Shown: in pieces, positions 5,984-30,059 of the stretch
Position numbering within the stretch: position 1 is the stretch's first letter
Layout: each line of letters opens with the position of its first letter
From: Isoetes taiwanensis
Lineage: Eukaryota > Streptophyta > Lycopodiopsida > Isoetales > Isoetaceae
NCBI GenBank assembly: GCA_021234155.1
Contig: JAJEKV010000058.1
Coordinates: 3,978,600-4,042,599 of the forward strand
Reading direction: 5' to 3'
Length of the DNA: 64,000 nucleotides
Made by a program: the position numbers and the translations under genes
The notes under the pieces: model-generated
Told to the model about the DNA's origin: nothing
Databases searched by the model: none
What the model saw: the letters and a program-made list of their open reading frames with translations, nothing else

Positions 5984-6091
5984 ATTGTAGCCTCCACCAC
6001 CAAAAGTACCCCGACCAAAGACATCTATACCCATATATACGTCCACAGCACGTTTCCCAGCAGCAGCTGCACACTCTGCTGGAATTCCTTT
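5984..6091 (-). pseudogene. Single orphan exon of endo-beta-N-acetylglucosaminidase (ENGase, GH85)
   Basis: A 108-base minus-strand exon with clean acceptor (gtgcag) and donor (AAT then GTAAGT) encodes 36 residues, including DVYMGIDVFGRGTFGGG. That motif is characteristic of plant cytosolic ENGase, which cuts the chitobiose core of free N-glycans. Exons expected next to it (the upstream NYTWK region and the downstream FAPGWVYE region) are not seen on either side. It is therefore a captured or stranded exon, or part of a gene with very long introns interrupted by transposons. Family call good; functional status unknown. Confidence 0.7.
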
Positions 6092-6654: not shown

Positions 6655-6662
6655 TAACTATG

Positions 6663-6715
6663 TTTCTGACGCTCAAGCGTCAGATAAAAAAAAAGCGTCA
6701 GATAAAATAATAATA
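6663..6715. promoter_or_regulatory. CACTA 5' subterminal repeats
   Basis: Three copies of a gcgtcag / ctgacgc heptamer lie in about 50 bases, two as an inverted pair (ctgacgctcaagcgtcag). The same heptamer recurs many times at the right end. In En/Spm-type elements such motifs bind the TNPA/TNP1 protein and overlap the promoter. Copy B lacks these left-end repeats because the duplicated block starts at 6775. Confidence 0.7.
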
Positions 6716-6800
6716 ACGCCAAAGGTTTTTAGTTTTTTTTTGGCCGAGTTTTTGGATTTAGGGTATATGCAGCAGGTTTGTGTCGTCTAAGCTATTCCAG

Positions 6801-8203
6801 ATGACTGACTCTGATGATGACTCTGATTCTCACTCTGATCATGACTCCGGTTCATCGTCTTCAATGCCGTCGACTGATGACTTCCCACCAATGAGGTTTG
6901 AGCCCCCTCTCTCTCTTTTATCTTGTATTTATTAACATGAATGGAATGCATGGCTGCTCTCAGTGATAGAGCTTCTTCGTCGTCTCGCTCAAGCGAATCC
7001 AAAGTAGCTAAACCTTGGCTTCGGAATGATCCATTGGAGCGGCTTGCAAGGCAGTATGGCAATTGTTGGTGTAAGAAATGCCAAGGCAATAACAGAAGAA
7101 TGTACAGCGTAAGACAAGAACACAAAAGAAAGTATGGTTTGATGAGAAATGCCCTACCTCCATCTGAGCCTGAATTGAAAGCACATCAAGAAGCAGACGA
7201 GGTAAGAACGTGCAGCTTGCAATTTTATTATTTGTCTTCTAGCAAAATGTCTAATATACATCTATATGATTTGTTGTAGTATTTGGACATGCTTGACAAA
7301 AATCTTGCACATGTCAATCCAATAGGTAGTCCTACGTCTTCATCCTCGTCTACTACATCATCAACTGGTCCATTCCCCTTCATTTCTTTTGATTCAAGTT
7401 CAAATTCTAGTTCAGGGGAAACTCAAGAAGTTAAGAGAGGTCGCACAAGGGGAAGTACAGTGGCTAAGATAGTTAAGAGTCGTTTTAAAAAAAGCTCACA
7501 TAACCTTGCTCATGCATGTGAAACTGAAAATGACATGGTTGATCAACTCCCTCATCATCTCAAAGCCTCTATTGTCCCATTTGTGCGAGCGTCGTTGGGT
7601 TGCTGGGACGGTGAACTACCTCCAATGTTGGAAGAGTTTATGTATTGGGGCCATAAATATATGATAGCTCCTTCTCTAAAAATGCCACAAGCTGGAAGGG
7701 GGTTGTATATAATGGAGCATGTGAATGTGCAGCCTGGTCACTCAGTTGTGTTGATGGTTTATGGCGGTCCCACGTACCCTTGGGGAGTATGGCATAAACT
7801 TACTTCTTTTATGCCTAGTATGTCTACTTATGCCATGACATTGAATGCGGCATCTTGGAGCGAGCAGAAAGATCGCGGAGAACATATTTCACGGGGCGCA
7901 CTTGTATATATCGATGGTCGACCAAGCGTTCATGGCAATATTGCAGCACTTATAAACAGCTCTCGTGGCCGCCCTGAATTAACAAATGCTGAGTTTGAAG
8001 AGACCACGGAACATGATCCACGGTACATGAGTGGATATGTTGGATCATACGTGACGGTTTGTGCCATACGGAGCCTCCATCCTGGAGATGAGTTATTTGT
8101 GAATTATCCCTTCAAAAGAGATATCCCTAGGCGGGTACGCCGCCAAAAAAATGGTGAACCTATTGTTGTGCCCTATGGCAGAAAACCCCACATAAATGGC
8201 TAG
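6801..8203 (+). CDS. Zinc finger plus SET-domain protein encoded inside the CACTA element (copy A)
   Basis: Three exons (6801-6895, 6964-7201, 7280-8203) join in phase to about 387 residues. The N-terminus is acidic and Ser-rich, followed by a short zinc-finger-like motif (CWCKKCQGNNRRM). The third exon has a Ser-rich linker and a SET-like domain: GRGLYIMEHVNVQPG matches the N-terminal glycine motif, GNIAALINSSRG...TNAEF the N-H-S-like pseudoknot motif, and AIRSLHPGDELFVNYPF the GEEL...Y motif with its tyrosine. SET proteins methylate lysines using S-adenosylmethionine; activity here is not shown. No Cys-rich post-SET motif is seen. The frame is open in this copy and broken in copy B. A phase-0 donor at 8135 could instead splice SET onto the TNP2 exon at 8431. 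Confidence 0.65.
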
Positions 8204-8430
8204 CTATATAATGTTGGGAATCATGACAATACTTACTTGTTTTTCTATAACATTGGGAATCTCAAATGTTTGATGTTTTAAGGTTTGACATTTATGCTTG
8301 ATAATAACAAGAATGTTCAAATATTTATTTTTGGATCAATAGTGAACTCTTTTTTTACGATCTATTATTCAACTTGTCTTTCTATTTTATTTAATTACCA
8401 CATTCACAAACAAAATGCATTTTTTTGCAG

Positions 8431-11400
8431 TCAAGTGATGATGATGTCTCATCTACCCAAAGTGATTTCCACGCAGAGAGTGGTTTGATGGAAGCTATTC
8501 AAAATTACTTCCCAACCAATAACGATGTAAATGTCAGTGATGAAGAAGAGAGGCCAATCACACTTCTTGAGAGAGAGTCTAGCAAACCACTATATTCAAA
8601 TGCAAAGATATCACGTCTTGCTGCATGCATTCTCATCCTCAATCTACAACATAAATCGGGATGGAGTAACAATAGTGTGGATGAACTTCTTGGGTGGGTG
8701 GTTCTCTTCTATTATATTCTTTGCTTTTCTTCACTCATTCCTTATACTTTTATCATGTTTGATAGTTTGCTAGGTGAGTACATACTTCCAAATGATAATT
8801 GTCTTCCAAAATCACGAAGAGACGTTAAACAACTCTTGCAAGAGCTAGGTTTGGAGTACAATTGTATTCACGCGTGCATAAATGATTGCATATTATTCCG
8901 CAATGAATATAGTGACATGAGTATTTGTCCTAAGTGCAACGAATCAAGGTATGATGAAAAAGCAAAGTCTAAAGTCCCAAAGAAAGTTTTGCGACACATG
9001 CCAATCATTCCACGATTACAAGTCATGTTTAAATGTCCTTCCCTAGCCCAATTTATGGACTTCCACGCCAAACACCGAAGCAATGATGGGATCTTGAGGT
9101 ACCCAACCGATGGTGAGGCTTTGAAACATATAGAAGACAAATGGCCACATTTTAAGGATGAACCAAGGAATGCTCGCCTTGCTTTGGGCATGGATGGAAT
9201 ATGTCCATTTGGCACGATGTCATCTACTCATAGTGTTTGGCCCATTGTTGTCATCAACTATAACATACCACCTTGGATGGCAACTAAGGTAGGACATTTA
9301 ATGCTAACGCTTATAGTTCCAGGTACATACCTTTATCCCTTGTGATCATTTTAAATAGGTTGTGGCTTATGCAAAGATATTTTTAGGCAAATACCAAGTC
9401 AAAGATATGAATGTATACTTAGAACCATTTGTGGAGGAATTGGATATTTTATGGAAAGGCATCAAAATGTATGACATTTCGAGGCAACCACATAATTTTA
9501 TGTTCCATGCAATACTATGCTTCACAATTCATGACTATCCTGGATTTAAAGTTGCGTCAGGTACGATACTCGCTCTTACTACATATTTTGTACGAGCTCT
9601 CTACTACAAGATTAACAATTGGAAGTATACTTTTTTTTGTAGGATTGCAAACTAGCGGATCATGTGGATGTCCCTCGTGCGGCCAAAACTTAACATCTTA
9701 TAGATCGCCACACTTGTCAAAGATGATATACATTGGCCATCAAAAGTTTCTACCACTAGGTCATCGGCTCCGTCGTGGTGATATATCAGATGTGCCCGTG
9801 CGAAGAACACCACGTGATTGGTTGGATACATGGAATGATCATGACCCAAAGGCGGGTAAACATCCTCTGGCATGAAGATGCTATCTCGTTCTACAAATTG
9901 GAATATTGGTCGAATTAAAGATTGCACACCTCTTAGATCCTATGCATTTTTCAAAAACGTAAGCCATTCACTTTGGCGACATCTTACGGGAGATTGGGAA
10001 ACTCTAAAAGCTAGGATGGATCTAAAGGATAAAGGCATCAAAAGTGAACTATGGCCAATTGAAGAAGAGGGTAGAGCTCCACGCTTTCCTCGCGGTCCTT
10101 GGGTATTGAAGAAGGATGAACTCAAACAAGTAAAATGTGCTATCAAAAGTTTCGCCTCCAAGCGGTTATGGATCTTCCCTTAGAAGGGCATTTACAAAAG
10201 ATGGGGATCTCACAGGGTTAAAGTCACATGATTGGCACAAGTTTCTACAGGTACATATAAGTATATAAAGTGAATAAGTATGACCAATGGACTAAAGTAA
10301 ACGAGCTCCACCACTAATTTGCTTATAGTATGTTTGTGACATCTAATTTGGGTTCCTTCTTATATGAGCATATTCTTCCATGTGCCTTGGAGAATTGCCT
10401 CACACCACGCATTCGGAAGGTCATCTATAGACTCGCCAACTTCTCTAGGTGGGTCTCTTCTAAGCAAATTGTAGCCGTCGATATCCCCATCATGGAAATA
10501 GAGATTGCTGAGATATTATGCGAACTAGAAGACCTATTTCCCACTAGTATATTTGATCTTCAGGTAATATAGCTATTTTGAATAAATTTCATGTACCAAT
10601 CACGCCTAACAAATGTGATTATTACCAGGTACATTTGTTGGTGCACTTGCCGCGAGAAATATTGCTTGTGGGTCCGAACCCTTCAAGATGGATGTTCTTT
10701 TTAGAGAGATATATGAAGGTGCTAAAAAGGCTTTGTCGCCCGGATGGCAAAACTGAGGGATGTATGGCGAGAAGGGCATCTTATTGAAGAGACATTATTC
10801 TTCTTAACAGATGCCACTATATCAATAGATCCAAATGCACCAAAAATTTGGAGGAAAGAGATTCCTGATTGGTTAGAAGGTGAAGTCTTACAAGGTCTAG
10901 GTAAACAACGGAGATTAAGCGATGAGATGTTTGAAGGCATCAATAAATTCATTGTGAATAATCTGAGATAGCCTTAGAAGGTGGGTGGAATTGTATAAAA
11001 TTGAGAAGGCACAAAGAGATAGTGATCGAAAAGCATATTTGCAAAGGAACCGTCGAGGACATCATAGGAGAGCTATACAATACCCTCGAGAACTAATGCC
11101 TCTACCTGATTCTCCACCCCATTGGTGGTTATCAAAAAAACTTAGAGAAGCTGAAGAAAATGGAGAGAAAATTCAAGAAGATGAACTCAACATTGCATTT
11201 GGTTCTGAAAAATTAGTAAGTTCGTATTTTTTGTTGCCAATATGTATTTTGCATTTGTCATAAGCATCTCCGTCACTTATATTTAACCAATCGTAGGCCA
11301 AGTTCCATAATTCAATGTGGGCATATGGTGCGCACTTTAGAATCGATGACATTGACAAAGCTCGCGTTACTTTTGACTCTGGAATCGTTGCCTCATTCAA

Positions 11401-12111
11401 TCAAAGGAGTCAAGCAAGCATTCGAGATAATAACCCTATTGATGGAGAACTTGAATATGTTGGGGTTATTACTGATATTATTGATGTGGATTTTCGATCA
11501 TTTCGACAGACTATACTGAAGGCCAAGTGGTTCAAACCTTTATATCGTGGGCCGAAATCACCACGGTGAGAGCACATCTTACGGATTTTTGAAGTTGACT
11601 CCACCCACGTCTTAGTGGAATGAAGCGCGAGCCATATGTATATCCACATCAAGTTCGACAAGTTTTCTTTCATGTCAACCCTCAAAACAATGCATGGTGG
11701 ATTGTAATTCCCACGGAACCAACGTCACGTCGACATATTTGCAATACAACCCTTGAAGAACAAGTGCAAGAGGATCAAGGAGAAGAGGTAGAGCATGAGC
11801 AAGTAATTGAATTTATTGAACCAAGAGATATAGAAGAATACGAAGCTCAAGAGAGAACAAGCAATCAAGGAGTGAGACCATTGATGCATTTTGATGAAGA
11901 TTATATTGAAGAGGAGGTTGAAGGAGAAACAAACAATCAAGGAGTGAGATCACCGATGCATTCCGACGAGGATTATATTGAAGAGGAGGAAGATATTGAG
12001 CTCCATACTCCAAATATGCGACGAAGGCTACTCCTACAACTGGACGATGATGAATGGGAGGACATTGAACATGATTTTGCGGACGAGAGTTTGATGTTTG
12101 GTGATCAATAA
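8431..12111 (+). pseudogene. TNP2 transposase (Transposase_21) with DUF4218 and DUF4216, copy A
   Basis: Exons start at the acceptor ttttttgcag (8430). Recognisable TNP2 blocks are DELLG, NDNCLPKSRRDVKQLL, CIHACINDCILF, CPKCNESRY, VPKKVLRHMPIIPRLQ, DGEALKHIEDKWPHF, NARLALGMDGICPFG and the SGSCGCPSCGQ zinc motif. DUF4218 follows (LVHLPREILLVGP, ERYMKVLK), then DUF4216 (GVITDIIDVDFRSF) and an acidic tail with a repeated DEDYIEEE unit. The N-terminal half (to about 9850) is open with in-phase introns (8694-8765, 9323-9386, 9561-9642). Downstream, small scrambled patches near 9860-9960, 10150, 10720-10790, 10955, 11035 and 11550-11630 break the frame. Copy B is open at those points, so consensus error is a real alternative to decay. 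Confidence 0.8.
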
Positions 12112-12839
12112 AAACAACATTTTATCTTATATTGAGTTCAAATGTGATTAAAGAATACTAATGTACCCCCATATATAATGCTTTTGGTTTTCATTAAGAT
12201 ATTGCATGCTTTTTTTCTTTCTTTCTTTTAAATTTCGTGCCAATCTTGAAATTGCTAAATTATTGGATATTTGTGAGGTAACAATAAATTGCCAAATTCC
12301 AAGAGTTTTAAACTTACTACCTTAAAATTCGGTTATGATGTGTTTTTCGGTGGCTGGAGTATATTTGGTCGCTTTGAAACATATAAAGATTTTAGGAATA
12401 TCAAATATTAAACTACTAGTTAGCCAATATTTGCAATGACATAGCATGCCCATAACAAATTCAATGTCTCTGGAGATGCCACATCGTCCGTCGAGGAACT
12501 CTATAGCGAGACTATAAAAGTGTCAAATTACAGTATGCATATAGTATTGTGCGACTTTTAAGTCTACTTGTTAGATTCTTAAAGCGTCACATAAACATAT
12601 AAATATTGGGTGCACGTGAGCTCAAGCCTACAATATATTAGATAGGGATAGAACTTGATCAAGCTTGGTCAAATAATACATTATTAGATAGATTGAGGAG
12701 ATAGCTTTGCAAAACATCAAATTCCATCAAAAACAGACTCTTGAATGAAATGTTATGACTAAATTTGTAATAATGCCTGGAGAAATATTCCTTGACGTAT
12801 AATATGACGTATAAACTGACATAATTTCTGACGATAAAA

Positions 12840-13156
12840 CTGACGAACTTTCTGACGCTAAACATGGCCTTAAAAATCGACAATACATATCATGCCATAC
12901 TCGGCGATAAGTGTGGCCAATTTTTTGACGATTAATTCGGCGCTTATTGTGGACGAAATATCGGCGACTTGCGTGAAAAAGCGTCGAGGAAACTAAAATG
13001 CAAATCGGCGCTTATTGTGCCGAAAATATCGGCGCGCTTGCGTCGAGAAAAAGCGTCGAATTCAAGCGTCGAAATTTCCGGCGGCATTTACGTCGGGCCA
13101 AAATATCTAGAGGCGGTCGGCGCTTTTTCGACAAAAACCCTCATTCTCTTGTAGTG
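12840..13156. repeat. CACTA 3' subterminal repeats and right terminal inverted repeat, copy A
   Basis: This is a dense field of gacgc/gcgtc motifs ending at ctcttgtagtg. Compared with copy B, nearly every ctgacg has become cggcg and gcgtcag has become gcgtcga or similar, while the sequence between motifs is unchanged. In copy B the repeats are regular, so the change in copy A is motif-specific. Confidence 0.7.
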
Positions 13157-14087
13157 AAAGATCCTGGATGTCCAGGTCCTGTAATGCACGGATAATGCTT
13201 AATAAAAAATGTTGGGGATATTATATTGTTATGAATTTGGATGAATTGTTGTGTTATGCTACTAAACATAATGGCATTATCTGGATGAACATCCAATGCC
13301 TTATTTACTATAGAGCTCAATATCAGAATGTATAAGGATAATCTTTTGAAAATCAATTCCCTGTTTGCCTGGTAAATGCTGCGACTGACGTCCAGGGGGA
13401 TTAATCTATATATATATTGGATATGCCATTTGCGCAGATGGGGTCAGGAAAAAACATCTTATTACTATGGGTCTAATAGAAAACCTCTTTTCATCTCCTA
13501 TCCATTCCTCTGCATGTATACCCCATAAAATATTTCTACAAAAAACCAGTAAACTTTTATATGTACTTTCTGCCCATATTCAACTGGTTTACGTATTTCT
13601 ATACGTAACCCTTAGTTATTTTTCATGCAACTAAGTCCATACTTGCATATTTTTCTGGATACATATATGTAAACAAATGCTAATAAAAAAACCCCTAAAA
13701 GTATTCATTGGTTTATTTATACACTACAAATGTGCATCCCTTTGAGCGATGGCAGCCAGGAGCAGCTCACCGACAGTAAAAAGAGAATTGCAGACCAAAA
13801 TGCTTACCCTTATCACAACTGGGGAGCAAGATTTTGATCAGTTGTTTACCTGTGTTGTCGATGATGTAGAATCAAAGGAGAAAATAGCTTTCTTATCGTT
13901 ATAGCCAACGTGGAAGTCTAAAATTCCACCACAAAAAATAATAGCGGCCCAACTGCAATATTGTTGGACATCTTCCATAGCCAATGATAAATTTGGGGCG
14001 TTACGTGGTGGAGAGCGAAAATAAACTACATGTGGAAGAGCAAAATGGCCTTGCTTATTTGAAATAAGCTTGCATATTGGAACTCCA

Positions 14088-14816
14088 TGTTAGATTATTT
14101 GCTTCTTGATAGAAGATAAATCATAGCATGAATCCCATAGCACTCAATAGCTTTCAATTTAAATGCACTTCCCCTTTATTACATCTTTCATTCACCATTG
14201 TGTTATATGAACAATATAACCATAATAAAACACTATTCACTTACCTATGGTCTTCAAAGGTCATTCAAATGATCATATACTGAAAATATTTCGTTACCCA
14301 AATACAAGCATTTACCTTGCGAACTCTACAATATTTCTTCAGCGAATCAAACTATATTCATCAATCATTCTATTTGATTTTATTTACAGGGATCCGGCGG
14401 TCATGGAGACTACCGATCCGCTCTGCAACTTCATTCGACCGTCCTGTATTTACAAAAATAGACCCAAGCTTTTCCCTCCAGGATAAGCTTTCTATTTTCA
14501 CTTTGACTGGGTCTTCGGCATAGAATCTTCAATGGTTAAAACATCAATAATGTATAATGTCTCAACCATTAACTTCGAACCATTAACTTCCAAATCTCAA
14601 CATTAGGTCTTAGTTCCAAAAATGCATAGGGAAAACTCTTTACCAGATTCTTTCCCCTACACCTTGTATCTTTGGTACTTAATCTGCTCAATGCATATAA
14701 ACTGTTCATCACCATAACAATTTTGCATGTACCAGCATTATGTTTAAGTAAACACACTTGTTCTGCAGTTGCCTCCAATTATGAGGTGAACTTAGGAAAG
14801 CAATCATTTCCTAACA
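14088..14816 (-). repeat. Copia 3' LTR
   Basis: A 729-base terminal repeat with TG...CA ends, at the left on the plus strand because the element runs in the minus direction. It is about 98.6 percent identical to the other LTR by eye. Confidence 0.95.
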
Positions 14817-15113
14817 TTCCCCTTTCACCTCATAATTTTTACATGGATCTAGATCCTGTTATTGTTCACACCATAATATCTTCTCCCCTTTTTTTTTATT
14901 GATACAACAATAGTCTGCTTACTGCCACTGCTTCTCATAAGCAGACTTATGTGAACTTTAATGGTTGTGCAATCAAGATCTTGATACAGTCTGACTACTG
15001 CCACTGCTTCTCATAGTCAGACCATGTAAACTTCAGTGTTTGTGCAATCATGACCTTCATTATTTGCACACTTGCTGAACAAATAATAACAAGTGTAACA
15101 GTCAGCAATTGTT

Positions 15114-18100
15114 TCAACCCTTTTCCTTGCATTTTTTTCTGCAGTGTATTCTTTCTGTCAGCATGTTGAATCTGTTACTGCTCAGCACCTTGGTCAAAAT
15201 GTCAGCCAGTTGTTCTTCAGATTTGATATGCTCAAGCTCAATAATATTTTTGTTAACCATGTCCCTAATGAAATGCATTTTCATTTCAATGTGTTTTGTT
15301 CTCTCGTGCATAACAGGATTTTTAGCCATGGCAATGCAACTCTTACTGTCACTATAAAGTATAGTTTGTACCTTTTGCTTTATTCCCAACTCATCCAGCA
15401 TTCTTCTTGTCCAAACAATCTCTTTTGCTGCTAAGGTTGATGATGAATACTCTGCTTCAGCTGTAGAAAGTGCTACTGAGGATTGTTTTTTGCTTCTCCA
15501 GCTTATTGGTCCACCTCCTAACATAAGTATGTATCCAGAAGTTGATCTTCTCTCATCTGGATCCCCACACCAGTCTGCATCACAGTATCCTACCAAGTTC
15601 AAATCATTAGTAGAATATTCTATACCCACATTTTTCGTTCCCTTCAGATACCTTAGTACTTTCTTGGCTGCAAGCCAATGTTGTTTGCCTGGGTTATGAT
15701 TGTACCTGCTTAGAACATTAACAATAAAACTGATATCTGGTCTGGTATTGTTTGATATGAACAGTAAGCTGCCAATTAAAGGCCTATATGGAATTTCCTC
15801 CATATATCTTTCTTTTTGCTCACTTTGTGGGCACATTTCTTTTGATATCTTGCACCCTGGCAGAACTGGAGATTTAACTATATTGCAATCTTCCATATTG
15901 AATTTTTTTAGCACATTTTCTATGTATTTTTCCTGAGACAAGTTTATCCTTCTATTTTTCCTGTCACGTGTCACTTCAACTCCAAGAAACTTCTTTAGTT
16001 CTCCAAGGTCTGTCATCATGAACCTGTTTTTCAACACCTTTTTGCATTTGTTCAACATTACCATGCTTTTACTAGCCATAATGCAATCATCAACATATAA
16101 ACCTATTATACAATGATCATCCTTTTCCTCAAACAAGTAGACATTTCCATCATTGTCTAATTTTCTGAAACCTTGAGTCATTAGAAAAGTATCCATACAT
16201 TTATACCATTCCCTAGGCGATTGTTTCAGCCCATACACAGCTCGATTTAGCTTCCATACTTTGTTTTTTCCCTGTTCATACCCAGGTGGCTGCTCCATGT
16301 ATATTTCCTCTTCCAGTTTTGCATTTAAGAAGGCTGTGTTTACATCCATGTGATGTAGTTCATAATCTAGTGCATTTGCAATTGCAACTATCATCCTTAT
16401 GCTGTTCATTTTAATGACAGGTGAATAGGTCTCATCATAATCAATTCCCTTCCTTTGAGTAAATCCTTGAGCCACAAGTCTTGCTTTGTGCTTAGAATTG
16501 CCATCTGCTCCTATTTTCAGTTTGTATACCCATTTGTTTCCCACTACATTCTTATCTTCTGGTCTTTCTACCACTTGATAGGTATCTGTCCTTTTAAATG
16601 AGTCTATTTCATCATTCATGGCTTGCCTCCATTTGTTGCTATCTAGATCATTGATTGCTTCATCAAAATTTTCTGGAATACCAGCTTCAAGAACCATTAA
16701 GGCTACAGCAGCATCTTCCCTTTGTGATTGTATTCTCACACTTTTACCATCTGGCAGCCTACCATATGTTTTGTGATCAATTTGCATTCCCTCTTTAAGT
16801 TTTTCTTCCTCTGTTTTTCTTCTCTTAACTGCTATATGTGTAACCTTTTCTGTTTCCTTTTCCTCTTGACTATGATCCTCAATAGATCTACTTTCCATAG
16901 ATCTGCAACTTTCTTTATCTGACTCATCATCATCACTGTCATATTGCTTTGTATCCTGTTTATTTCCCTCTGTTTCTTGATCAGAATTATCAAGCTTTTC
17001 TTTATTTAATGTAGGCTTATACAACTTATTTTCCACGAAAGTAACATCCCTACTTATGATTATTTTTCTATTGGCTGGGTTGTATATCCTATAAGCCTTT
17101 GAGTTTTCGTCATACCCCACTAAATATCCAATTGTAGATCTATCATCAAGTTTAGATCTTAATTCTTCAGGTATATGCGCATACACTAGACATCCATAGG
17201 CTTTATACTTTTCATAATTAGGTATATTTCCAGACCAAAGTTCCTCTGGGCAATGTTCATCTATACTTACTGAAGGTAACCCATTTTGAACAAGGACAGC
17301 AGTCTTCACGGCTTCTTCCCATAGGAAATTAGGTAATCCACTATGCTTCAACATTGATCTAACTGCATTAAGAATTGTTTTATTTTTTCTCTCAGCTACA
17401 CCATTTTGCTGAGGTGTGTAGCTGCATGTAAACTGCCTTCTAATTCCCCTTTCAATGCAAAATTTAATGAATTTGGAAGACATGTACTCACCTCCTCTGT
17501 CTGACCGTACACACCTGATTCTTCTTCCAGTGGAGCACTCAACTTCTGCTGCATATCTCTTGAAGGCTTCAAAAGCTAGATCTTTACTCCTTAGACAGTA
17601 GACCTGTGTTTTTCTGCTGAAATCATCAACAAAGGTTATGAAGTATTTTTTGCCAGTAATTCCAGTGACATTCAGTGGACCACATAGATCTGTATGTATC
17701 AATTCAAGTGGAGCCTTAGCTCTTTTCTTGGCCTTAGGAAATGGTAACCTGCTGTGTTTTCCTAACATGCATCCCAAACATGCATTCTCATTGTATTCAA
17801 TGTTTCTGCTCTTAATCCAATTTTTCTTAATCATGTTTTCGATTTGTTTTATACCAGCATGTCCAAGTCTTTCATGCCATGTCTGAATATTAGCATCAGT
17901 GGTCAGATTTATGCTTCCCATGTACTTAGAATTTAATCCAAACAAATTGCCAACTCTTTTGCCAAGAAATCTTAATTTATTCCCTTCATAGATCTTACAT
18001 TCAAGTTGTTCAAATACAACCTTGAATCCCATGTCTACTAACTGGGAAATTGATATAAGATTCCTAACTAATGTAGGAACACAAAGAACATTTTTCAGAT

Positions 18101-19337
18101 TTACAATTCTTCCATCTAAATCAAACAACTCCAATACTCCAACGTCTTCAACCTTCTGCAAACTTCCATTGCCTACTTGAATGTGACCTCCTTTGCTTCC
18201 AATGCAATCCTTCAGGTTCTTGGAAGAGTATGTTATCGATTTTTCAGCTCCACTATCTATAATTAACAAGTCATCATCAATTCTGTTATCAGAAATTGAA
18301 AAAATCTGAGTTTTGTTTACCTCTTCATTTTCTTCTGGACTATCCTCTTCAAGTTTTACCTCTTCAGCCACATTTGCCTCATAATTGAATTTTCCACCTC
18401 TCCCTCTACCTCTTCCTCTAAAACCAGATCCTCTGCCACCTCTGCCCCTTCCCCTTGCACTGGTATTCTCCTTGGGAGTTGAACAAGTTGATGCAATATG
18501 TCCCTTCCCCCCACAATGATAACAGAAAATTTCCCTTGAGACATTAGGACAATCAACTTTCAAATGTCCATATTTATTGCAGTTAAAGCATGGCCCAATC
18601 TTTCCTCCAAACCTAGCTTCTTGTTTAGATTTATTGCTTTCCTTTCCTTTGACAAACAGTATTTGAGCAGAATCATTTTCTCCAAGCACTTTGTTTTGCT
18701 CTAATTCTGTCTTTAGCATTCTTTCTGCTTCAACTTTGGTCTTAGCAATAGTTCTCATAAAGATGGAAATGTTACCTAAACCAGAGCAAGCCCTTGACAT
18801 AGCCAGAACTTGCTGTTGCTGAGTATAGGCCACCCCTGCTCCCTCAAGATCTGCAATCACATTATCAAAGTTCTGCAAGAACTCGTTTATATCATCATTT
18901 TCATGAAACTTCAGTCTTCTTAACTCATTTTCCAACACATCAATTTGAGAGGATGTCTTTTCCTCATAGTTAATCAACAAGTAATTCCACATTTGCTTAG
19001 GTGTCATACCTCTAAGTTTTAGCACAATGCTGGAACTTACTTTGCTCATTATGATTCCTTGAGCTTCTTTTATTTTAGCCTTCACTCCTGAGCCTCCTCT
19101 TGCTGAGATCTCACTTATTTCATCACCTTGCTCTTCTACATTTCCTTCAGTGCTCGAACTCCCTTCAGCTGGAACTCTTCTTCTTACACTTGCAACTTCT
19201 TCAACAGGTTCTATTAGATCCCAAAGATCCTCAACCTCCAGAACATGCTTAATCTTTTCTTTCCAAACTTGAAAGCCTGAATCTCCCTTGAAAACATCTA
19301 TGGCATTTAGTAGCCCTGCTCCAAATCTGCTTGACAT
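15114..19337 (-). CDS. Copia Gag-Pol polyprotein
   Basis: A single open frame of about 1407 residues starts at MSSRFGAGL. Order of parts: Gag, two CCHC zinc knuckles (CFNCNKYGHLKVDC and CYHCGGKGHIASTC), aspartic protease (LIIDSGAEKS), pre-integrase HHCC region and integrase (HTDLCGPL), reverse transcriptase with YVDD, and RNase H. The order integrase then reverse transcriptase places it in Ty1-copia. It looks whole. Confidence 0.95.
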   Translation of the reverse strand: MSSRFGAGLLNAIDVFKGDSGFQVWKEKIKHVLEVEDLWDLIEPVEEVASVRRRVPAEGSSSTEGNVEEQGDEISEISARGGSGVKAKIKEAQGIIMSKVSSSIVLKLRGMTPKQMWNYLLINYEEKTSSQIDVLENELRRLKFHENDDINEFLQNFDNVIADLEGAGVAYTQQQQVLAMSRACSGLGNISIFMRTIAKTKVEAERMLKTELEQNKVLGENDSAQILFVKGKESNKSKQEARFGGKIGPCFNCNKYGHLKVDCPNVSREIFCYHCGGKGHIASTCSTPKENTSARGRGRGGRGSGFRGRGRGRGGKFNYEANVAEEVKLEEDSPEENEEVNKTQIFSISDNRIDDDLLIIDSGAEKSITYSSKNLKDCIGSKGGHIQVGNGSLQKVEDVGVLELFDLDGRIVNLKNVLCVPTLVRNLISISQLVDMGFKVVFEQLECKIYEGNKLRFLGKRVGNLFGLNSKYMGSINLTTDANIQTWHERLGHAGIKQIENMIKKNWIKSRNIEYNENACLGCMLGKHSRLPFPKAKKRAKAPLELIHTDLCGPLNVTGITGKKYFITFVDDFSRKTQVYCLRSKDLAFEAFKRYAAEVECSTGRRIRCVRSDRGGEYMSSKFIKFCIERGIRRQFTCSYTPQQNGVAERKNKTILNAVRSMLKHSGLPNFLWEEAVKTAVLVQNGLPSVSIDEHCPEELWSGNIPNYEKYKAYGCLVYAHIPEELRSKLDDRSTIGYLVGYDENSKAYRIYNPANRKIIISRDVTFVENKLYKPTLNKEKLDNSDQETEGNKQDTKQYDSDDDESDKESCRSMESRSIEDHSQEEKETEKVTHIAVKRRKTEEEKLKEGMQIDHKTYGRLPDGKSVRIQSQREDAAVALMVLEAGIPENFDEAINDLDSNKWRQAMNDEIDSFKRTDTYQVVERPEDKNVVGNKWVYKLKIGADGNSKHKARLVAQGFTQRKGIDYDETYSPVIKMNSIRMIVAIANALDYELHHMDVNTAFLNAKLEEEIYMEQPPGYEQGKNKVWKLNRAVYGLKQSPREWYKCMDTFLMTQGFRKLDNDGNVYLFEEKDDHCIIGLYVDDCIMASKSMVMLNKCKKVLKNRFMMTDLGELKKFLGVEVTRDRKNRRINLSQEKYIENVLKKFNMEDCNIVKSPVLPGCKISKEMCPQSEQKERYMEEIPYRPLIGSLLFISNNTRPDISFIVNVLSRYNHNPGKQHWLAAKKVLRYLKGTKNVGIEYSTNDLNLVGYCDADWCGDPDERRSTSGYILMLGGGPISWRSKKQSSVALSTAEAEYSSSTLAAKEIVWTRRMLDELGIKQKVQTILYSDSKSCIAMAKNPVMHERTKHIEMKMHFIRDMVNKNIIELEHIKSEEQLADILTKVLSSNRFNMLTERIHCRKKCKEKG

Positions 19338-19370
19338 TTTTTTCTTGCCTTCAACCTGCTCTGATACCAC

Positions 19371-20099
19371 TGTTAGATTATTTGCTTCTTGATAGAAGAT
19401 AAATCATAGCATGAATCCCATAGCACTCAATAGCTTTCAATTTAAATGCACTTCCCCTTTATTACATCTTTCATTCACCATTGTGTTATATGAACAATAT
19501 AACCATAATAAAACACTATTCACTTACCTATGGTCTTCAAAGGTCATTCAAATGATCATATACTGAAAATATTTCGTTACCCAAATACAAGCATTTACCT
19601 TACGAACTCTACAATATTTCTTCAGTGAATCGAACTATCTTCATCAGTCATTCTATTTGATTTTATTTACAGGGATCCGGCGGTCATGGAGACTACCGAT
19701 CCGCTCTGCAACTTCATTCGACCGTCCTGTATTTACAAAAATAGACCCAAGCTTTTCCCTCCAGGATAAGCTTTCTATTTTCACTTTGACTAGGTCTTCG
19801 GCATAGAATCTTCAATGGTTAAAACATCAATAATGTATAATGTCTCAACCATTAACTTCGAGCCATTAACTTCCAAATCTCAACATTAGGTCTTAGTTCC
19901 AAAAATGCATAGTGAAAACTCTTTACCAGATTCTTTCCCCTACACCTTGTATCTTTGGTACTCAATCTGCTCAATGCATATAAACTGTTCATCACCATAA
20001 CAATTCTGCATGTACCAGCATTATGTTTAAGTAAACACACTTGTTCTGCAGTTGCCTCCAATTATGAGGTGAACTTAGGAAAGCAATCATTTCCTAACA
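19371..20099 (-). repeat. Copia 5' LTR
   Basis: A 729-base LTR next to the tRNA-iMet primer binding site. It is the same length as the 3' LTR, followed by the ctcca target duplication. Confidence 0.95.
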
Positions 20100-20583
20100 C
20101 TCCACATGTAAGACTACACCATGATAGTCCAATCTTGCTTGACCCATTGCAATGAATCGCTGCAAACAAGCAGACCCCTCTGGATGCAAATGCAGTGGCA
20201 TGTTTGAAGTTTGTGGTGAATGCAAGGGTACATTTTCTAAACAAAGAGTGCCCCTTAATTTTTGAACGGTCCAGATTTATGCCACAATATGAGTCGTCAA
20301 TCGGGGCAGAGACATAAGTCATTCTTTTATCATATAAGATTGTATTTTAGTGAATAGCTGCTTTCACACTAAAAATAGCATTAGCTGAAAATAATTTTGG
20401 CTAGCATGCCAATCAATTGTTCATCTTGGCCATTTGGTCTTGGATATTCTTTGCTATCTAATGTCCCCTTTGCTATCTAACGTCATCTCCTTGTGGTTTG
20501 GTAGCAGTCATTTGGGTTAGCAATTAGAAGATCTTGCTTTCAAGTCTCTCTTGGGATACTTAGGGAACTGTTATATATCTCTA

Positions 20584-20757
20584 TGTTGAGTACTACTATC
20601 TAACTATTGTCTCCATGTATATATCTCTATTGGGGGAGGACGGGGGAATGTTGAGTACTACTATCTAACTATTGTCTCCATGTACATTTAGAGGGCCTCT
20701 ATTGGGGAATGTTGAGTACTACTATCTAACTAACGTCCATGTACATATAGAGGGATA

Positions 20758-20790
<33 letters not shown>

Positions 20791-20830
20791 GGGAATGTTG
20801 AGTACTACTATCTATCTATTATCTTCGTGG
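20584..20830. repeat. Short tandem units with a poly-T tract, unit A
   Basis: Four imperfect copies of a unit built on gttgagtactactatctaac followed by a ccatgtaca motif. The third and fourth are separated by a poly-T run of about 29 bases. The same array occurs in unit B at about 29730-29980 with a slightly different T-run. Confidence 0.7.
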
Positions 20831-20909
20831 ACGATAAAATCAATTCAGTTCAATTCTTATCCCAAAAGATCTTGAGTGCCATCTATCTATTGTCTCCATG
20901 GACGATAAA

Positions 20910-21600
20910 AATCAATTCATGCCATGCTTGGTATATCTGACATGATTAATCTAACTTTGGGAGCATGTTTTGATTGTATAAATCAACTACTCTAACTTTG
21001 GGAGTATCAGTTTTGATCGTATAAATCAACGAATCTAACGTTGAAAGTATGTTTAGATTGTATAAATCAACGAAGCTTTGTATTTTGAAGAGAAAGGTAG
21101 CCACACGTGGTATATCTGGCATCATGAATCAAAGATGATAAAAATAATTCATGCCATGCTTGGTATATCTGACATGATTAATCTAACTTTGGGAGCATGT
21201 TTTGATTGTACAAATCAACTAGTCTAACTTTGGAGTATGTTTTGATTGTATAAATCATCGAATCTAACTTTGGAAGTATGTTTTGATTGTATAAAGCAAT
21301 GAAGCTTTGTATTTTGAAGAGAAGGTAGCCACACTTGGTATATGTGGCATGATGAATCTAACTTTGGGAGCTGTGTTTTTGATTGTATATATCAACTAAT
21401 CTAACTTTGGGTGTATATTTTGATTGTATAAATCAACGAAGCTTTGTATCCACTGATCTCTTGGTCTCCATTGACGATAAAAATCAATTTAATTCAATTC
21501 TTATCTCAAGAGATCTTGGATAAAATTCAATTTAATTCAATTCTATGGTTAATTTAACTTTGGGAGTAGTTTTGATTGTATAAATCGGCAAAGCTTTTGT
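20910..21600. repeat. Degenerate minisatellite, unit A
   Basis: Roughly 35- to 45-base units containing ctaactttgggagtatg and ttttgattgtataaatcaac repeat many times with drift. A longer period (about 200-240 bases) carries catgccatgcttggtatatc and gaagctttgtattttgaag. It is non-coding. The unit B copy lies at about 30060-30750. Confidence 0.7.
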
Positions 21601-21945
21601 AGCATGAAATGGGTGTCTCTGTGTTGGATTAAAACGATCGCTAGTGCTCACACTTCTACTTCATGATAGAGTGCGACAAAGTTTGCTTTGCCCCAGTCCT
21701 TTGAGAAGCTTAATAGCTCTCATAATGAGTCCTAGTTTGTTAGTTGATGTTTTTTTGTTTCTGGCTAAAAACATTTTATTGGAGGGCAATCTGATGGGCA
21801 GGGTCTAGTCTCATAGATTACGAGTTTCTTTGTAAAGTCTAGTAGGTAATGTTCTCTTGTATTGTAAAGTCTAGTAGGTAATGTTCTTGTATGACTACTT
21901 TGCTGGCATTTGCGATCCAGGTTTGTGTCGTCTAAGCTATTCCAG

Positions 21946-23383
21946 ATGACTGACTCTGATGATGACTCTGATTCTCACTCTGATCATGACTCCGGTTCAT
22001 CGTCTTCAATGCCGTCGACTGATGACTTCCCACCAATGAGGTTTGAGCCCCCTCTCTCTCTTTTATCTTGTATTTATTAACATGAATGGAATGCATGGCT
22101 GCTCTCAGTGATAGAGCTTCTTCGTCGTCTCGCTCAAGCGAATCCAAAGTAGCTAAACCTTGGCTTCGGAATGATCCATTGGAGCGGCTTGCAAGGCAGT
22201 ATGGCAATTGTTGGTGTAAGAAATGCCAAGGCAATAACAGAAGAATGTACAGCGTAAGACAAGAACACAAAAGAAAGTATGGTTTGATGAGAAATGCCCT
22301 ACCTCCATCTGAGCCTGAATTGAAAGCACATCAAGAAGCAGACGAGGTAAGAACGTGCAGCTTGCAATTTTATTATTTGTCTTCTAGCAAAATGTCTAAT
22401 ATACATCTATATGATTTGTTGTAGTATTTGGACATGCTTGACAAAAATCTTGCACATGTCAATCCAATAGGTAGTCCTACGTCTTCATCCTCGTCTACTA
22501 CATCATCAACTGGTCCATTCCCCTTCATTTCTTTTGATTCAAGTTCAAATTCTAGTTCAGGGGAAACTCAAGAAGTTAAGAGAGGTCGCACAAGGGGAAG
22601 TAGAGTGGCTAAGATAGTTAAGAGTCGTTTTAAAAAAAGCTCACATAACCTTGCTCATGCATGTGAAACTGAAAATGACATGGTTGATCAACTCCCTCAT
22701 CATCTCAAAGCCTCTATTGTCCCATTTGTGCGAGCGTCGTTGGGTTGCTGGGACGGTGAACTACCTCCAATGTTGGAAGAGTTTATGTATTGGGGCCATA
22801 AATATATGATAGCTCCTTCTCTAAAAATGCCACAAAATTCGGAAGGGGTTGTATATAATGGAGCATGTGAATGTGCAGCCTGGTCACTCAGTTGTGTTGA
22901 TGGTTTATGGCGGTCCCACGTACCCTTGGGGAGTATGGCATAAACTTACTTCTTTTATGCCTAGTATGTCTACTTATGCCATGACATTGAATGCGGCATC
23001 TTGGAGCGAGCAGAAAGATCGCGGAGAACATATTTCACTGGGGCGACTTTGTATATATCGATGGTCGACTGCGTTCATGGCAATATTGCAAAGCACTTAT
23101 AAAAGCGACTCTCGTGGCATACCGAATTAACAAATGCCGAGTTTGAAGAGACCACGGAACATGATCCACGGTACATGAGTGGATATGTTGGATCATACGC
23201 GACCGGGTTTGTGCCATACGGAGCCTCCATCCTGGAGATGAGTTATTTGTGAATTATCCCTTCAAAAGAGATATCCCTAGGCGGGTACGCCGCCAAAAAA
23301 ATGGTGAACCTATTGTTGTGCCCTATGGCAGAAAACCCCACATAAATGGCTAGCTATATAATGTTGGGAATCATGACAATACT
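21946..23383 (+). pseudogene. Zinc finger-SET ORF, copy B, frame broken
   Basis: The leader exons are identical to copy A. The SET exon diverges from the copy A frame near 22836, where cacaaaattcgg replaces cacaagctgg. More scrambled patches follow at 23036-23130 and about 23200. After these the sequence is again identical to copy A, including the end of the SET motif. Confidence 0.75.
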
Positions 23384-23580
23384 TACTTGTTTTTCTATAA
23401 CATTGGGAATCTCAAATGTTTGATGTTTTAAGGTTTGACATTTATGCTTGATAATAACAAGAATGTTCAAATATTTATTTTTGGATCAATAGTGAACTCT
23501 TTTTTTACGATCTATTATTCAACTTGTCTTTCTATTTTATTTAATTACCACATTCACAAACAAAATGCATTTTTTTGCAG

Positions 23581-26500
23581 TCAAGTGATGATGATGTCTC
23601 ATCTACCCAAAGTGATTTCCACGCAGAGAGTGGTTTGATGGAAGCTATTCAAAATTACTTCCCAACCAATAACGATGTAAATGTCAGTGATGAAGAAGAG
23701 AGGCCAATCACACTTCTTGAGAGAGAGTCTAGCAAACCACTATATTCAAATGCAAAGATATCACGTCTTGCTGCATGCATTCTCATCCTCAATCTACAAC
23801 ATAAATCGGGATGGAGTAACAATAGTGTGGATGAACTTCTTGGGTGGGTGGTTCTCTTCTATTATATTCTTTGCTTTTCTTCACTCATTCCTTATACTTT
23901 TATCATGTTTGATAGTTTGCTAGGTGAGTACATACTTCCAAATGATAATTGTCTTCCAAAATCACGAAGAGACGTTAAACAACTCTTGCAAGAGCTAGGT
24001 TTGGAGTACAATTGTATTCACGTGCATAAATGATTGCATATTATTCCTTAGAATGAATATAGTGACATGAGTATTTGTCAAGTGCAACGAATCAAGGTAT
24101 GATGAAAAAGCAAAGTCTAAAGTCCCAAAGAAAGTTTTGCGACACATGCCAATCATTCCACGATTACAAGTCATGTTTAAATGTCCTTCCCTAGCCCAAT
24201 TTATGGACTTCCACGCCAAACACCGAAGCAATGATGGGATCTTGAGGTACCCAACCGATGGTGAGGCTTTGAAACATATAGAAGACAAATGGCCACATTT
24301 TAAGGATGAACCAAGGAATGCTCGCCTTGCTTTGGGCATGGATGGAATATGTCCATTTGGCACGATGTCATCTACTCATAGTGTTTGGCCCATTGTTGTC
24401 ATCAACTATAACATACCACCTTGGATGGCAACTAAGGTAGGACATTTAATGCTAACGCTTATAGTTCCAGGTACATACCTTTATCCCTTGTGATCATTTT
24501 AAATAGGTTGTGGCTTATGCAAAGATATTTTTAGGCAAATACCAAGTCAAAGATATGAATGTATACTTAGAACCATTTGTGGAGGAATTGGATATTTTAT
24601 GGAAAGGCATCAAAATGTATGACATTTCGAGGCAACCACATAATTTTATGTTCCATGCAATACTATGCTTCACAATTCATGACTATCCTGGATTTAAAGT
24701 TGCGTCAGGTACGATACTCGCTCTTACTACATATTTTGTACGAGCTCTCTACTACAAGATTAACAATTGGAAGTATACTTTTTTTTGTAGGATTGCAAAC
24801 TAGCGGATCATGTGGATGTCCCTCGTGCGGCCAAAACTTAACATCTTATAGATCGCCACACTTGTCAAAGATGATATACATTGGCCATCAAAAGTTTCTA
24901 CCACTAGGTCATCGGCTCCGTCGTGGTGATATATCAGATGTGCCCGTGCGAAGAACACCACGTGATTGGTTGGATACATGGAATGATCATGACCCAAAGA
25001 CGGGTAAACATCCTCCTGGCATGAAGATGCTATCTACGTTCTACAAATTGGAATATTGGTCTGAATTAAAGATTGCACACCTCTTAGATCCTATGCACAT
25101 TTTCAAAAACGTAAGCCATTCACTTTGGCGACATCTTACGGGAGATTGGGAAACTCTAAAAGCTAGGATGGATCTAAAGGATAAAGGCATCAAAAGTGAA
25201 CTATGGCCAATTGAAGAAGAGGGTAGAGCTCCACGCTTTCCTCGCGGTCCTTGGGTATTGAAGAAGGATGAACTCAAACAAGTAAAATGTGCTATCAAAA
25301 GTTTGCGCACTCCAACTGGTTATGGATCTTCCCTTAGAAGGGCATTTACAAAAGATGGGGATCTCACAGGGTTAAAGTCACATGATTGGCACAAGTTTCT
25401 ACAGGTACATATAAGTATATAAAGTGAATAAGTATGACCAATGGACTAAAGTAAACGAGCTCCACCACTAATTTGCTTATAGTATGTTTGTGACATCTAA
25501 TTTGGGTTCCTTCTTATAACAACATATTCTTCCATGTGCCTTGGAGAATTGCCTCACACCACGCATTCGGAAGGTCATCTATAGACTCGCCAACTTCTCT
25601 AGGTGGGTCTCTTCTAAGCAAATTGTAGCCGTCGATATCCCCATCATGGAAATAGAGATTGCTGAGATATTATGCGAACTAGAAGACCTATTTCCCACTA
25701 GTATATTTGATCTTCAGGTAATATAGCTATTTTGAATAAATTTCATGTACCAATCACGCCTAACAAATGTGATTATTACCAGGTACATTTGTTGGTGCAC
25801 TTGCCGCGAGAAATATTGCTTGTGGGTCCGAACCCTTCAAGATGGATGTTCTTTTTAGAGAGATATATGAAGGTGCTAAAAGGCTTTGTGCGCCAGATGG
25901 CAAGGCCTGAGGGATGTATGGCAGAAGGGCATCTTATTGAAGAGACATTATTCTTCTTAACAGATGCCACTATATCAATAGATCCAAATGCACCAAAAAT
26001 TTGGAGGAAAGAGATTCCTGATTGGTTAGAAGGTGAAGTCTTACAAGGTCTAGGTAAACAACGGAGATTAAGCGATGAGATGTTTGAAGGCATCAATAAA
26101 TTCATTGTGAATAATACAGATAGCCTTAGAAGGTGGGTGGAATTGTATAAAATTGAGAAGGCACAAAGAGATAGTGATCGAAAAGCATATGCTGCAAGGA
26201 ACCGTCGAGGACATCATAGGAGAGCTATACAATACCCTCGAGAACTAATGCCTCTACCTGATTCTCCACCCCATTGGTGGTTATCAAAAAAACTTAGAGA
26301 AGCTGAAGAAAATGGAGAGAAAATTCAAGAAGATGAACTCAACATTGCATTTGGTTCTGAAAAATTAGTAAGTTCGTATTTTTTGTTGCCAATATGTATT
26401 TTGCATTTGTCATAAGCATCTCACGTCACTTATATTTAACCAATGCGTAGGCCAAGTTCCATAATTCAATGTGGGCATATGGTGCGCACTTTAGAATCGA

Positions 26501-27263
26501 TGACATTGACAAAGCTCGCGTTACTTTTGACTCTGGAATCGTTGCCTCATTCAATCAAAGGAGTCAAGCAAGCATTCGAGATAATAACCCTATTGATGGA
26601 GAACTTGAATATGTTGGGGTTATTACTGATATTATTGATGTGGATTTTCGATCATTTCGACAGACTATACTGAAGGCCAAGTGGTTCAAACCTTTATATC
26701 GTGGACGAAATCACACAGTGAGAGCACATCCTTCTGGATTTTTTGAAGTTGACTCCACCCACGTCTTAGTGGACAGAAGCGAGCCATATGTATATCCACA
26801 TCAAGTTCGACAAGTTTTCTTTCATGTCAACCCTCAAAACAATGCATGGTGGATTGTAATTCCCACGGAACCAACGTCACGTCGACATATTTGCAATACA
26901 ACCCTTGAAGAACAAGTGCAAGAGGATCAAGGAGAAGAGGTAGAGCATGAGCAAGTAATTGAATTTATTGAACCAAGAGATATAGAAGAATACGAAGCTC
27001 AAGAGAGAACAAGCAATCAAGGAGTGAGACCATTGATGCATTTTGATGAAGATTATATTGAAGAGGAGGTTGAAGGAGAAACAAACAATCAAGGAGTGAG
27101 ATCACCGATGCATTCCGACGAGGATTATATTGAAGAGGAGGAAGATATTGAGCTCCATACTCCAAATATGCGACGAAGGCTACTCCTACAACTGGACGAT
27201 GATGAATGGGAGGACATTGAACATGATTTTGCGGACGAGAGTTTGATGTTTGGTGATCAATAA
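23581..27263 (+). pseudogene. TNP2 transposase, copy B, mostly open
   Basis: Same blocks as copy A. Three small changes at 24020-24090 break the frame in the zinc/CPKC region where copy A is open. Downstream the exons are open: 24791-25403 (GLQTSGSCGCPSCGQ to HDWHKFLQ), DUF4218 (ending EGCMAEGHLIEE) and 26469-27263 with DUF4216 and the acidic tail. The tail contains a tandem protein repeat (NQGVR-P-MH-DEDYIEEE twice). The two copies are complementary: where one is shifted the other reads through. Confidence 0.8.
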
Positions 27264-27944
27264 AAACAACATTTTATCTTATATTGAGTTCAAATGTGAT
27301 TAAAGAATACTAATGTACCCCCATATATAATGCTTTTGGTTTTCATTAAGATATTGCATGCTTTCTTTCTTTCTTTCTTTTAAATTTCGTGCCAATCTTG
27401 AAATTGCTAAATTATTGGATATTTGTGAGGTAACAATAAATTGCCAAATTCCAAGAGTTTTAAACTTACTACCTTAAAATTCGGTTATGATGTGTTTTTC
27501 GGTGGCTGGAGTATATTTGGTCGCTTTGAAACATATAAAGATTTTACGAATATCAAATATTAAACTACTAGTTAGCCAATATTTGCAATGACATAGCATG
27601 CCCATAACAAATTCAATGTCTCTGGAGATGCCACATCGTCCGTCGAGGAACTCTATAGCGAGACTATAAAAGTGTCAAATTACAGTATGCATATAGTATT
27701 GTGCAGCTTTAAGTCTACTTGTTAGATTCTTAAACGTCACATAAACATATAAATATTGGGTGCACGTGAGCTCAAGCCTACAATATATTAGATAGGGATA
27801 GAACTTGATCAAGCTTGGTCAAATAATACATTATTAGATAGATTGAGGAGATAGCTTTGCAAAACATCAAATTCCATCAAAAACAGACTCTTGAATGAAA
27901 TGTTATGACTAAATTTGTAATAATGCCTGGAGAAATATTCCTTG

Positions 27945-28315
27945 ACGTATAATATGACGTATAAACTGACGTAATTTCTGACGATAAAACTGACGAACTT
28001 TCTGACGCTAAACATGACGCAAAATCTGACAATACATATCTGTCGCATACTCTGGCGATAAGTGTGACGAATTTTTTGACGATTAATTCTGACGCTTATT
28101 GTGACGAAATATCTGACGCACTTGCGTCAGAAAAAGTGTCAGGAAACTAAAATGCAAATCTGACGCTTATTGTGACGAAATATCTGACGCACTTGCGTCA
28201 GAAAAAGCGTCAGGAATTCAAGCGTCAGAATTTCCGACAGCATTTACGTCAGGCCAAAATATCTCTAGACAGTCTGACGCTTTTTCTGACAAAAAACCCT
28301 CATTCTCTTGTAGTG
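27945..28315. repeat. CACTA 3' subterminal repeats and terminal repeat, copy B
   Basis: Numerous regular copies of ctgacgc / gcgtcag, in both orientations and often as inverted pairs (for example cttgcgtcagaaaaagcgtc), end at the CACTA-type terminus ctcttgtagtg. Gene-proximal motifs are spaced by about 15-20 bases (gacgtat, gacgaac, gacgcta). Confidence 0.8.
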
Positions 28316-29912: not shown

Positions 29913-29947
<35 letters not shown>

Positions 29948-29980: not shown

Positions 29981-30059
29981 ATCTTCGTGGGACGATAAAA
30001 TCAATTCGGTTCAATTCTTATCCCAAAAGATCTTGAGTGCCATCTATCTATTGTCTCCA

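What the first reader, a model, noticed from the sequence alone, without database searches (positions are those of the whole stretch)
6801..8203. SET methyltransferase-like domain encoded inside a CACTA transposon
Between the left subterminal repeats and the TNP2 exons lies an open frame with the SET motifs (GRGLYIMEHVNVQPG, GNIAALINSSRG, AIRSLHPGDELFVNYPF). Ordinary CACTA elements encode TNP1 and TNP2; captured Ulp1-like proteases are known, and Hsmar1/SETMAR is a known SET-transposase union in primates, but I know of no CACTA family that carries SET. A transposon with its own histone-lysine methyltransferase could alter chromatin at its ends or escape silencing. The domain call is from motifs seen; the role is inference.
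Basis: partly seen in the sequence, partly recalled or inferred. Interest (0 to 1): 0.85.

Follow-up and report, generated by a model that had tools for sequence, protein, structure and literature searches.

The report
Jumping gene carrying methyltransferase-like exon
A large, old family of CACTA jumping genes in this genome carries, inside an intron of its own transposase gene, a well-preserved exon for a SET domain, the fold of enzymes that methylate histones, so these transposons may be able to change the chromatin marks that control them.

Summary
Window 6801-8203 encodes a three-exon, 418-aa protein whose last exon is a SET domain: Pfam borderline for this copy, 36 of 37 relatives match, and the AlphaFold model matches known SET methyltransferases. 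It is not a one-off capture. The genome search gives 155 matches (listed rows 42-100% identical; capped list). TNP2 lies downstream on the same strand in 25 of the 30 best loci and 16 of 18 divergent ones. SET and TNP2 diverged together (Mantel r 0.93). SET is under purifying selection (omega 0.13-0.14; TNP2 0.075). New here: ten SET-less relatives join the same exon 2 straight to TNP2, so the SET exon, with its own stop, sits in the transposase intron as an alternative 3' exon. Most likely one gene makes N-domain+SET and N-domain+transposase, as En/Spm makes TNPA and TNPD. No transcript was seen; activity, targets and any anti-silencing role are inference. Rooted on the deepest lineages, SET is ancestral to the sampled family and was lost at least three times. 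Both window copies look damaged. SET genes in other DNA transposons (HarbingerS, MuDR of oomycetes) are in print; my searches showed none in CACTA. Verdict: real, a new variant of a known kind.

The parts
6801..6895 (+). Exon 1 (Asp/Ser-rich, start codon)
   Evidence: Splice model with one open frame; inferred, no transcript
6964..7201 (+). Exon 2: CxCxxC...H motif domain, phase-0 donor at 7201; shared with SET-less transposase genes
   Evidence: no usable Pfam match
7280..8203 (+). SET exon with its own stop codon
7844..8107 (+). Stretch matched by Pfam SET (PF00856 positions 43-104)
   Evidence: residues 116-203 of window 7499-8200
8431..9345 (+). First TNP2 exons (small intron inside; ends approximate); phase-0 acceptor tttttttgcag just before 8431
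   Evidence: PF02992 in 8425-9345; acceptor
9429..12111 (+). Further TNP2 exons, frame broken in this copy
   Evidence: ORFs compared with copy B; domains of copy B
6662..6715 (.). Left-side TGACGC/GCGTCA-type repeats
   Evidence: sequence
12780..13120 (.). Right subterminal repeats, degraded in copy A and clearer in copy B (about 27930-28290)
   Evidence: sequence
13140..13156 (-). Right terminus CACTACAAGAGAATGAG
   Evidence: 91 genome matches of the 24-base form, 0 for the reversed control
21918..28315 (+). Copy B: left-truncated tandem duplicate with SET frame broken; right terminus 28299-28315
14085..20103 (-). Copia element that split the first duplicated unit (LTRs 14085-14820 and 19367-20103); not part of the CACTA element

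Best explanation
A long-standing lineage of CACTA (En/Spm-type) transposons carries a SET-domain exon in the intron between exon 2 and the TNP2 exons of its transposase gene. Exon 2 ends in one phase-0 donor that can join either of two phase-0 acceptors. Joining the SET exon, which brings a stop, gives an N-terminal-domain+SET protein; joining the TNP2 exon gives N-terminal-domain+transposase. Shown by sequence: SET fold, intron position, splice signals, retention across subfamilies, co-divergence with TNP2, purifying selection. Inferred: that both isoforms are made, that the shared N-terminal domain binds element DNA, and that the SET protein is active and methylates histones (or the transposase) so that element copies stay expressible or transpose better.
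For: SET call and fold. 155 matches in the genome; TNP2 downstream on the same strand in 25 of the 30 best loci and 16 of 18 divergent SET loci; 0 of 8 best PF00856 loci (L001-L008) show TNP2, exon 2 or this SET. Ten SET-less loci have exon 2 followed by TNP2. Donor and both acceptors in phase 0 in 20 of 25 readable SET+ loci. L065 and L076 carry SET but have no in-frame Met in the first TNP2 exon, so their transposase needs an upstream start and must skip the SET stop. Omega 0.141 for 32 SET rows; 0.130 SET and 0.075 TNP2 on the same 19 elements. Mantel r 0.93, 0 of 5000 permutations as high. Tyr111, Asp139, His145, Asn147, Asn153, Tyr203 invariant in 37 of 37.
Against: No transcript or protein data. 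Window-type copies have a conserved Met in the first TNP2 exon, so a separate start is possible there. In the L037/L039/L056/L068/L069 group the TNP2 acceptor read has no pyrimidine tract, and in L058-L064 exon 2 was not detected, so the layout is not shown in those lineages. The canonical NHxC motif reads NSS in 33 of 37. Many copies lack SET, so it is not essential for spread. Both window copies have broken frames.
Confidence: 0.72

Rival explanations
1. SET is a separate second gene of the element with its own start and promoter, merely lodged in the transposase intron; no shared N-terminal domain.
For: An ATG lies 4 codons into the SET exon in the window and the exon is open by itself. Window-type TNP2 has its own conserved Met.
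Against: A phase-0 acceptor directly before the SET exon is kept in window-type copies, and the donor of exon 2 is kept with it (20 of 25 readable loci). SET-less relatives show exon 2 to be part of the transposase gene, and L065 and L076 need that upstream start.
Confidence: 0.17
2. The SET module is kept but is not an active methyltransferase: it binds chromatin, cofactor or the transposase.
For: NHxC reads NSS in 33 of 37, the YxG Tyr is Phe in 7 of 37. Some SET-fold proteins are known to lack activity (recalled).
Against: GxG, Asn153, Tyr111 and Tyr203 are kept (G66 36, G68 34, the others 37 of 37). PRDM9 is active with a divergent NHxC (recalled). Compatible with either gene layout, so its odds are not exclusive of the other readings.
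Confidence: 0.2
3. Passive capture: a host SET exon was picked up and is carried along without function.
For: CACTA elements often capture host genes (PMC8616336 passages); some copies lack SET.
Against: Omega 0.13-0.14 with 2dL of 956 and 796 against neutrality, on internal as well as tip branches; retention across subfamilies as low as about 40% identity; co-divergence with TNP2.
Confidence: 0.05

Closest known systems
HarbingerS and MuDR DNA transposons of Phytophthora with SET genes (Repbase Reports 2014, as cited in PMC12730594; primary reports not seen)
   Same: A DNA transposon that carries a SET histone-methyltransferase-type gene
   Different: Harbinger and MuDR transposases in oomycetes; here CACTA/TNP2, with SET as an exon inside the transposase intron
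En/Spm of maize (recalled)
   Same: CACTA transposon whose two proteins TNPA and TNPD come from one transcript by alternative splicing
   Different: TNPA is not a SET protein; here the alternative exon codes for SET; no TNPA/TNP1 was sought here
TET/JBP-carrying transposons of fungi, including CMCT-clade elements (PMC12730594)
   Same: DNA transposons that captured an epigenetic enzyme, in several lineages
   Different: DNA dioxygenase instead of SET; fungi
SETMAR/Hsmar1 of primates (recalled)
   Same: SET joined with a transposase
   Different: A host gene fused to one mariner copy; here SET travels with a multi-copy family
VANDAL anti-silencing proteins of Arabidopsis MuDR elements (mentioned in PMC12730594 passages)
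   Same: Transposon protein acting on the element's own epigenetic state: the nearest functional model
   Different: Not a SET protein; the role is reported there and only inferred here

Membership tests
CACTA / En-Spm transposon | TNP2-type transposase | tested here: met
   PF02992 E 7.5e-29 and DUF4218 E 4e-18; DUF4216 below its cut-off
CACTA / En-Spm transposon | CACTA terminal inverted repeats at both ends | tested here: inconclusive
   Right end found, also 3.4-5.3 kb downstream of 8 of 55 SET places, always inverted; left end not found
CACTA / En-Spm transposon | Subterminal repeats | tested here: met
   TGACGC/GCGTCA-type repeats seen by eye on both sides; no statistical test made
CACTA / En-Spm transposon | 3-bp target-site duplication | not tested
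   Flanks of complete copies could not be fetched
SET-domain lysine methyltransferase | SET fold and profile match | tested here: met
   36 of 37 relatives; 136 PDB chains at E <= 0.001; this copy borderline in Pfam
SET-domain lysine methyltransferase | GxG, YxG, Asn of NHxC, catalytic Tyr | tested here: met
   Kept in 34-37 of 37 except YxG Tyr 30 of 37; roles recalled, part of the pairing seen against MLL1
SET-domain lysine methyltransferase | Complete NHxC motif | tested here: not met
   Reads NSS in 33 of 37
SET-domain lysine methyltransferase | Methyl transfer to lysine | not testable with these tools
   Needs protein
HarbingerS (SET-carrying Harbinger) | Harbinger-type transposase | tested here: not met
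   The transposase is TNP2/PF02992
En/Spm-like two-product gene | Two proteins by alternative splicing of one transcript | tested here: inconclusive
   Splice signals and shared exon fit; no transcripts

The most novel reading that the evidence does not exclude
A self-regulating transposon family in which mutually exclusive splicing of one gene yields either the transposase or an element-targeted SET methyltransferase sharing its N-terminal DNA-binding domain. The SET protein would write an anti-silencing or transposition-promoting mark on copies of its own family: a transposon-encoded chromatin writer acting in trans.
Probability: 0.33. Interest if true: 0.88.

Novelty: new variant of a known kind. 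Interest (0 to 1): 0.72.

Why it matters
Hosts silence transposons through histone and DNA methylation. A CACTA lineage that has kept its own SET domain under purifying selection through deep divergence would be a natural case of a transposon writing chromatin marks instead of only evading them. SET-less sister lineages in the same genome (TNP2 91% identical between SET+ and SET-less copies) make the effect of SET on expression, chromatin and copy number directly testable. The intron-lodged alternative exon also shows how a transposon can gain a second protein while reusing its transposase's N-terminal domain.

Tried and rejected
One-off capture: rejected by retention, co-divergence and omega. 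Chance SET motifs: rejected by the profile over relatives and the fold. A close microbial or viral source: scans of viral contigs and genome contigs with the 37-row alignment gave no relative by tblastn; the viral structure library gave 11 matches at E <= 0.001, 12-22% identical, remote SET proteins. The host donor gene was not found or sought further. Exon 2 has no usable Pfam match. A left terminus was sought in the window and in the loci then held and not found. The two window copies as independent insertions: rejected; they are a tandem segmental duplication with a Copia element inserted in the first unit. In the first tree L052 sat as a deep SET-less row on a branch of 2.37; on checking, its TNP2 matches the L055 type only in two pieces (67.7% and 42.1% identity), so I left it out and rebuilt with four more divergent SET+ rows.

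Limits of counts. One search scored 150 of 1382 candidates; some of its 155 matches are pieces of one copy and not all are listed. In one search I pasted 133 of the rows listed; 50 of 150 TNP2 rows had a pasted SET row within 8 kb upstream, an understatement since both lists are capped. In one search I used 55 SET rows picked by me, mostly window-like; 2 of the 8 with a terminus are the window copies the pattern came from and 2 are neighbours on C1044. The 18 divergent SET loci were chosen by me. The omega runs left out 8 of 39 open rows: 3 duplicates and 5 shifted or shortened copies; only open copies were used. Tree rows with more than two stops (L032, L063) were dropped. In one search, 28 SET+ rows had all three sites read; I set aside L056, L068 and L069 because the SET-exon match began only at residue 17, which leaves 25; the five that fail are L011, L020, L024, L032, L033.

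Full report
Observation. Exons 6801-6895, 6964-7201 and 7280-8203, joined at GT-AG borders, give 418 aa with a single terminal stop. Pfam SET (PF00856) scores 22.1 bits for the whole protein, a shade under the 22.4 cut-off, and 22.8 bits for the last 234 aa. As a family the call is firm: 36 of 37 aligned relatives match SET, and an AlphaFold2 model made with that alignment (mean pLDDT 74.3, pTM 0.73) matches 136 PDB chains at E <= 0.001, led by MLL1/2, LegAS4, ATXR5 and SETD8, with SET7/9 and PRDM9 further down. Sequence searches of the PDB are not significant (best E 0.096 to an unrelated protein with one sequence; 0.31 to MLL1 with the profile), so this is a divergent SET.

Setting. Downstream lie TNP2-type exons (PF02992, DUF4218, and DUF4216 below its cut-off), TGACGC/GCGTCA-type repeats and a right terminus CACTACAAGAGAATGAG at 13140-13156. 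A 24-base form of the terminus occurs 91 times in the genome with up to one mismatch, 0 times for the reversed control. Of 55 SET places picked mostly as window-like, 8 have it 3.4-5.3 kb downstream, always inverted; about 0.09 are expected within 15 kb by chance (two of the 8 are the window copies themselves). No left terminus was found.

Window copies. The stretch 6773-14087 recurs at 21918-29249 (98.2%) and 20099-21919 recurs at 29244-31079 (98.8%): a tandem segmental duplication, its first unit split by a Copia element with LTRs of about 737 bp. Copy A has an open SET frame and a broken TNP2 frame, copy B a broken SET frame and longer TNP2 frames. Neither looks autonomous.

Family. The SET part has 155 matches in the genome, listed rows 42-100% identical (150 of 1382 candidates scored, some matches are pieces of one copy). 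Of the 30 best loci, 25 carry TNP2 in the downstream 1.5 kb on the same strand (L013, L026, L034, L035, L036 do not, though for L013 TNP2 lies 6.9 kb on). Of 18 divergent SET loci chosen by me, 16 carry TNP2 (not L054, L062). The 8 best PF00856 loci, presumably host genes, show neither TNP2 nor exon 2. In 22 of the 30 best loci the SET stretch is open over most of its length.

SET exon in an intron. Exon 2 (a CxCxxC...H motif) was searched by itself. In ten loci (L049-L052, L055, L071, L073, L074, L081, L082) it is followed by TNP2 with no SET between; L084 is a weak eleventh. A SET profile run on six frames of 16 SET-less or undetermined loci found nothing better than E 0.69. In these genes exon 2 ends, and the TNP2 exon begins, at a codon boundary. 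SET+ copies keep the same donor and the same TNP2 acceptor and add an acceptor before the SET exon; all three are in phase 0 in 20 of 25 readable loci. The SET exon ends in a stop. L065 and L076 have SET but no in-frame Met in the first TNP2 exon, so their transposase needs an upstream start and must skip the SET exon. In window-type copies a conserved Met there leaves a separate start possible. The layout is not shown for the L037/L039 group (acceptor without a pyrimidine tract) or for L058-L064 (exon 2 not detected).

Constraint and history. On 19 elements with both parts open, SET gives 0.130 and TNP2 0.075, with no clear difference between internal and tip branches. Only open copies were used; the model itself has no stop codons. 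SET and TNP2 distances correlate at r 0.93 (0.97 without L060), 0 of 5000 permutations as high. On a TNP2 tree of 47 rows rooted on the five most divergent rows, all SET+, SET+ rows lie on both sides of the root and the 9 SET-less rows form three nested lineages plus undetermined rows, so SET is ancestral to this sample with at least three losses. The rooting is my choice, backbone support is partly weak, and the tree needs 7 label changes when undetermined rows are counted. A SET-less copy (L055) and a SET+ copy (L065) are 91% identical in TNP2.

Active site. Tyr111, Asp139, His145, Asn147, Asn153 and Tyr203 are invariant in 37 of 37; GxG is kept in 34 or more; the YxG Tyr is Phe in 7; NHxC reads NSS in 33. 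The profile alignment to MLL1 pairs HGN, the Asn and the GxEL...Y motif. Catalytic roles are recalled. The pattern fits an active enzyme but does not show one.

Mechanism. Best reading (0.72): one transcription unit, two products, both starting with exons 1-2. Shown by sequence: exon layout, splice signals, retention, constraint, fold. Inferred: that both isoforms are made, that exon 2 binds element DNA, that SET methylates histones or the transposase, that this helps the element. Rivals: a separate SET gene (0.17), a SET module without activity (0.2, compatible with either layout), passive capture (0.05).

Known and new. [quoted passage not shown] the primary Repbase reports were not seen). 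Searches for CACTA, EnSpm, HarbingerS or DNA transposons with SET domain listed no paper whose title or shown abstract reports a CACTA family with SET; I saw passages of two, PMC12730594 and PMC8616336, and read none whole. The library lacks most subscription journals and Repbase, so absence is not proof. I rate it a new variant of a known kind.

Noticed in passing
window 5984-6091 (minus strand): A 36-aa stretch matches Glyco_hydro_85 (endo-beta-N-acetylglucosaminidase, E 1.3e-5). It lies mostly in a part not shared with the C919 copy, so whether the element captured it or it is flanking host DNA is open.
   Followed up: partly
window 6773-31079: Tandem segmental duplication of about 9 kb whose left breakpoint lies inside the CACTA element, with a Copia element inserted in the first unit.
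   Followed up: yes
genome contigs C1026:16221830-16230830, C1030:6729514-6737711, C1035:12694944-12705014, C314:28407-35392, C1107:2533060-2537374: Five pairs of the terminus in inverted orientation 4-10 kb apart, possibly complete elements; contents not read.
   Followed up: no
L059-L063: A divergent SET subfamily, several copies with the same 278-aa open frame and near-identical sequence, hinting at recent spread.
   Followed up: partly
L056, L057, L068, L069: Copies in which one open frame of 427-435 codons runs from exon 2 through the SET domain, perhaps without the intron between them.
   Followed up: no
window 59504-59920 (+): Open frame matching DUF7869 (E 2.7e-8), perhaps from another transposon.
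   Followed up: no
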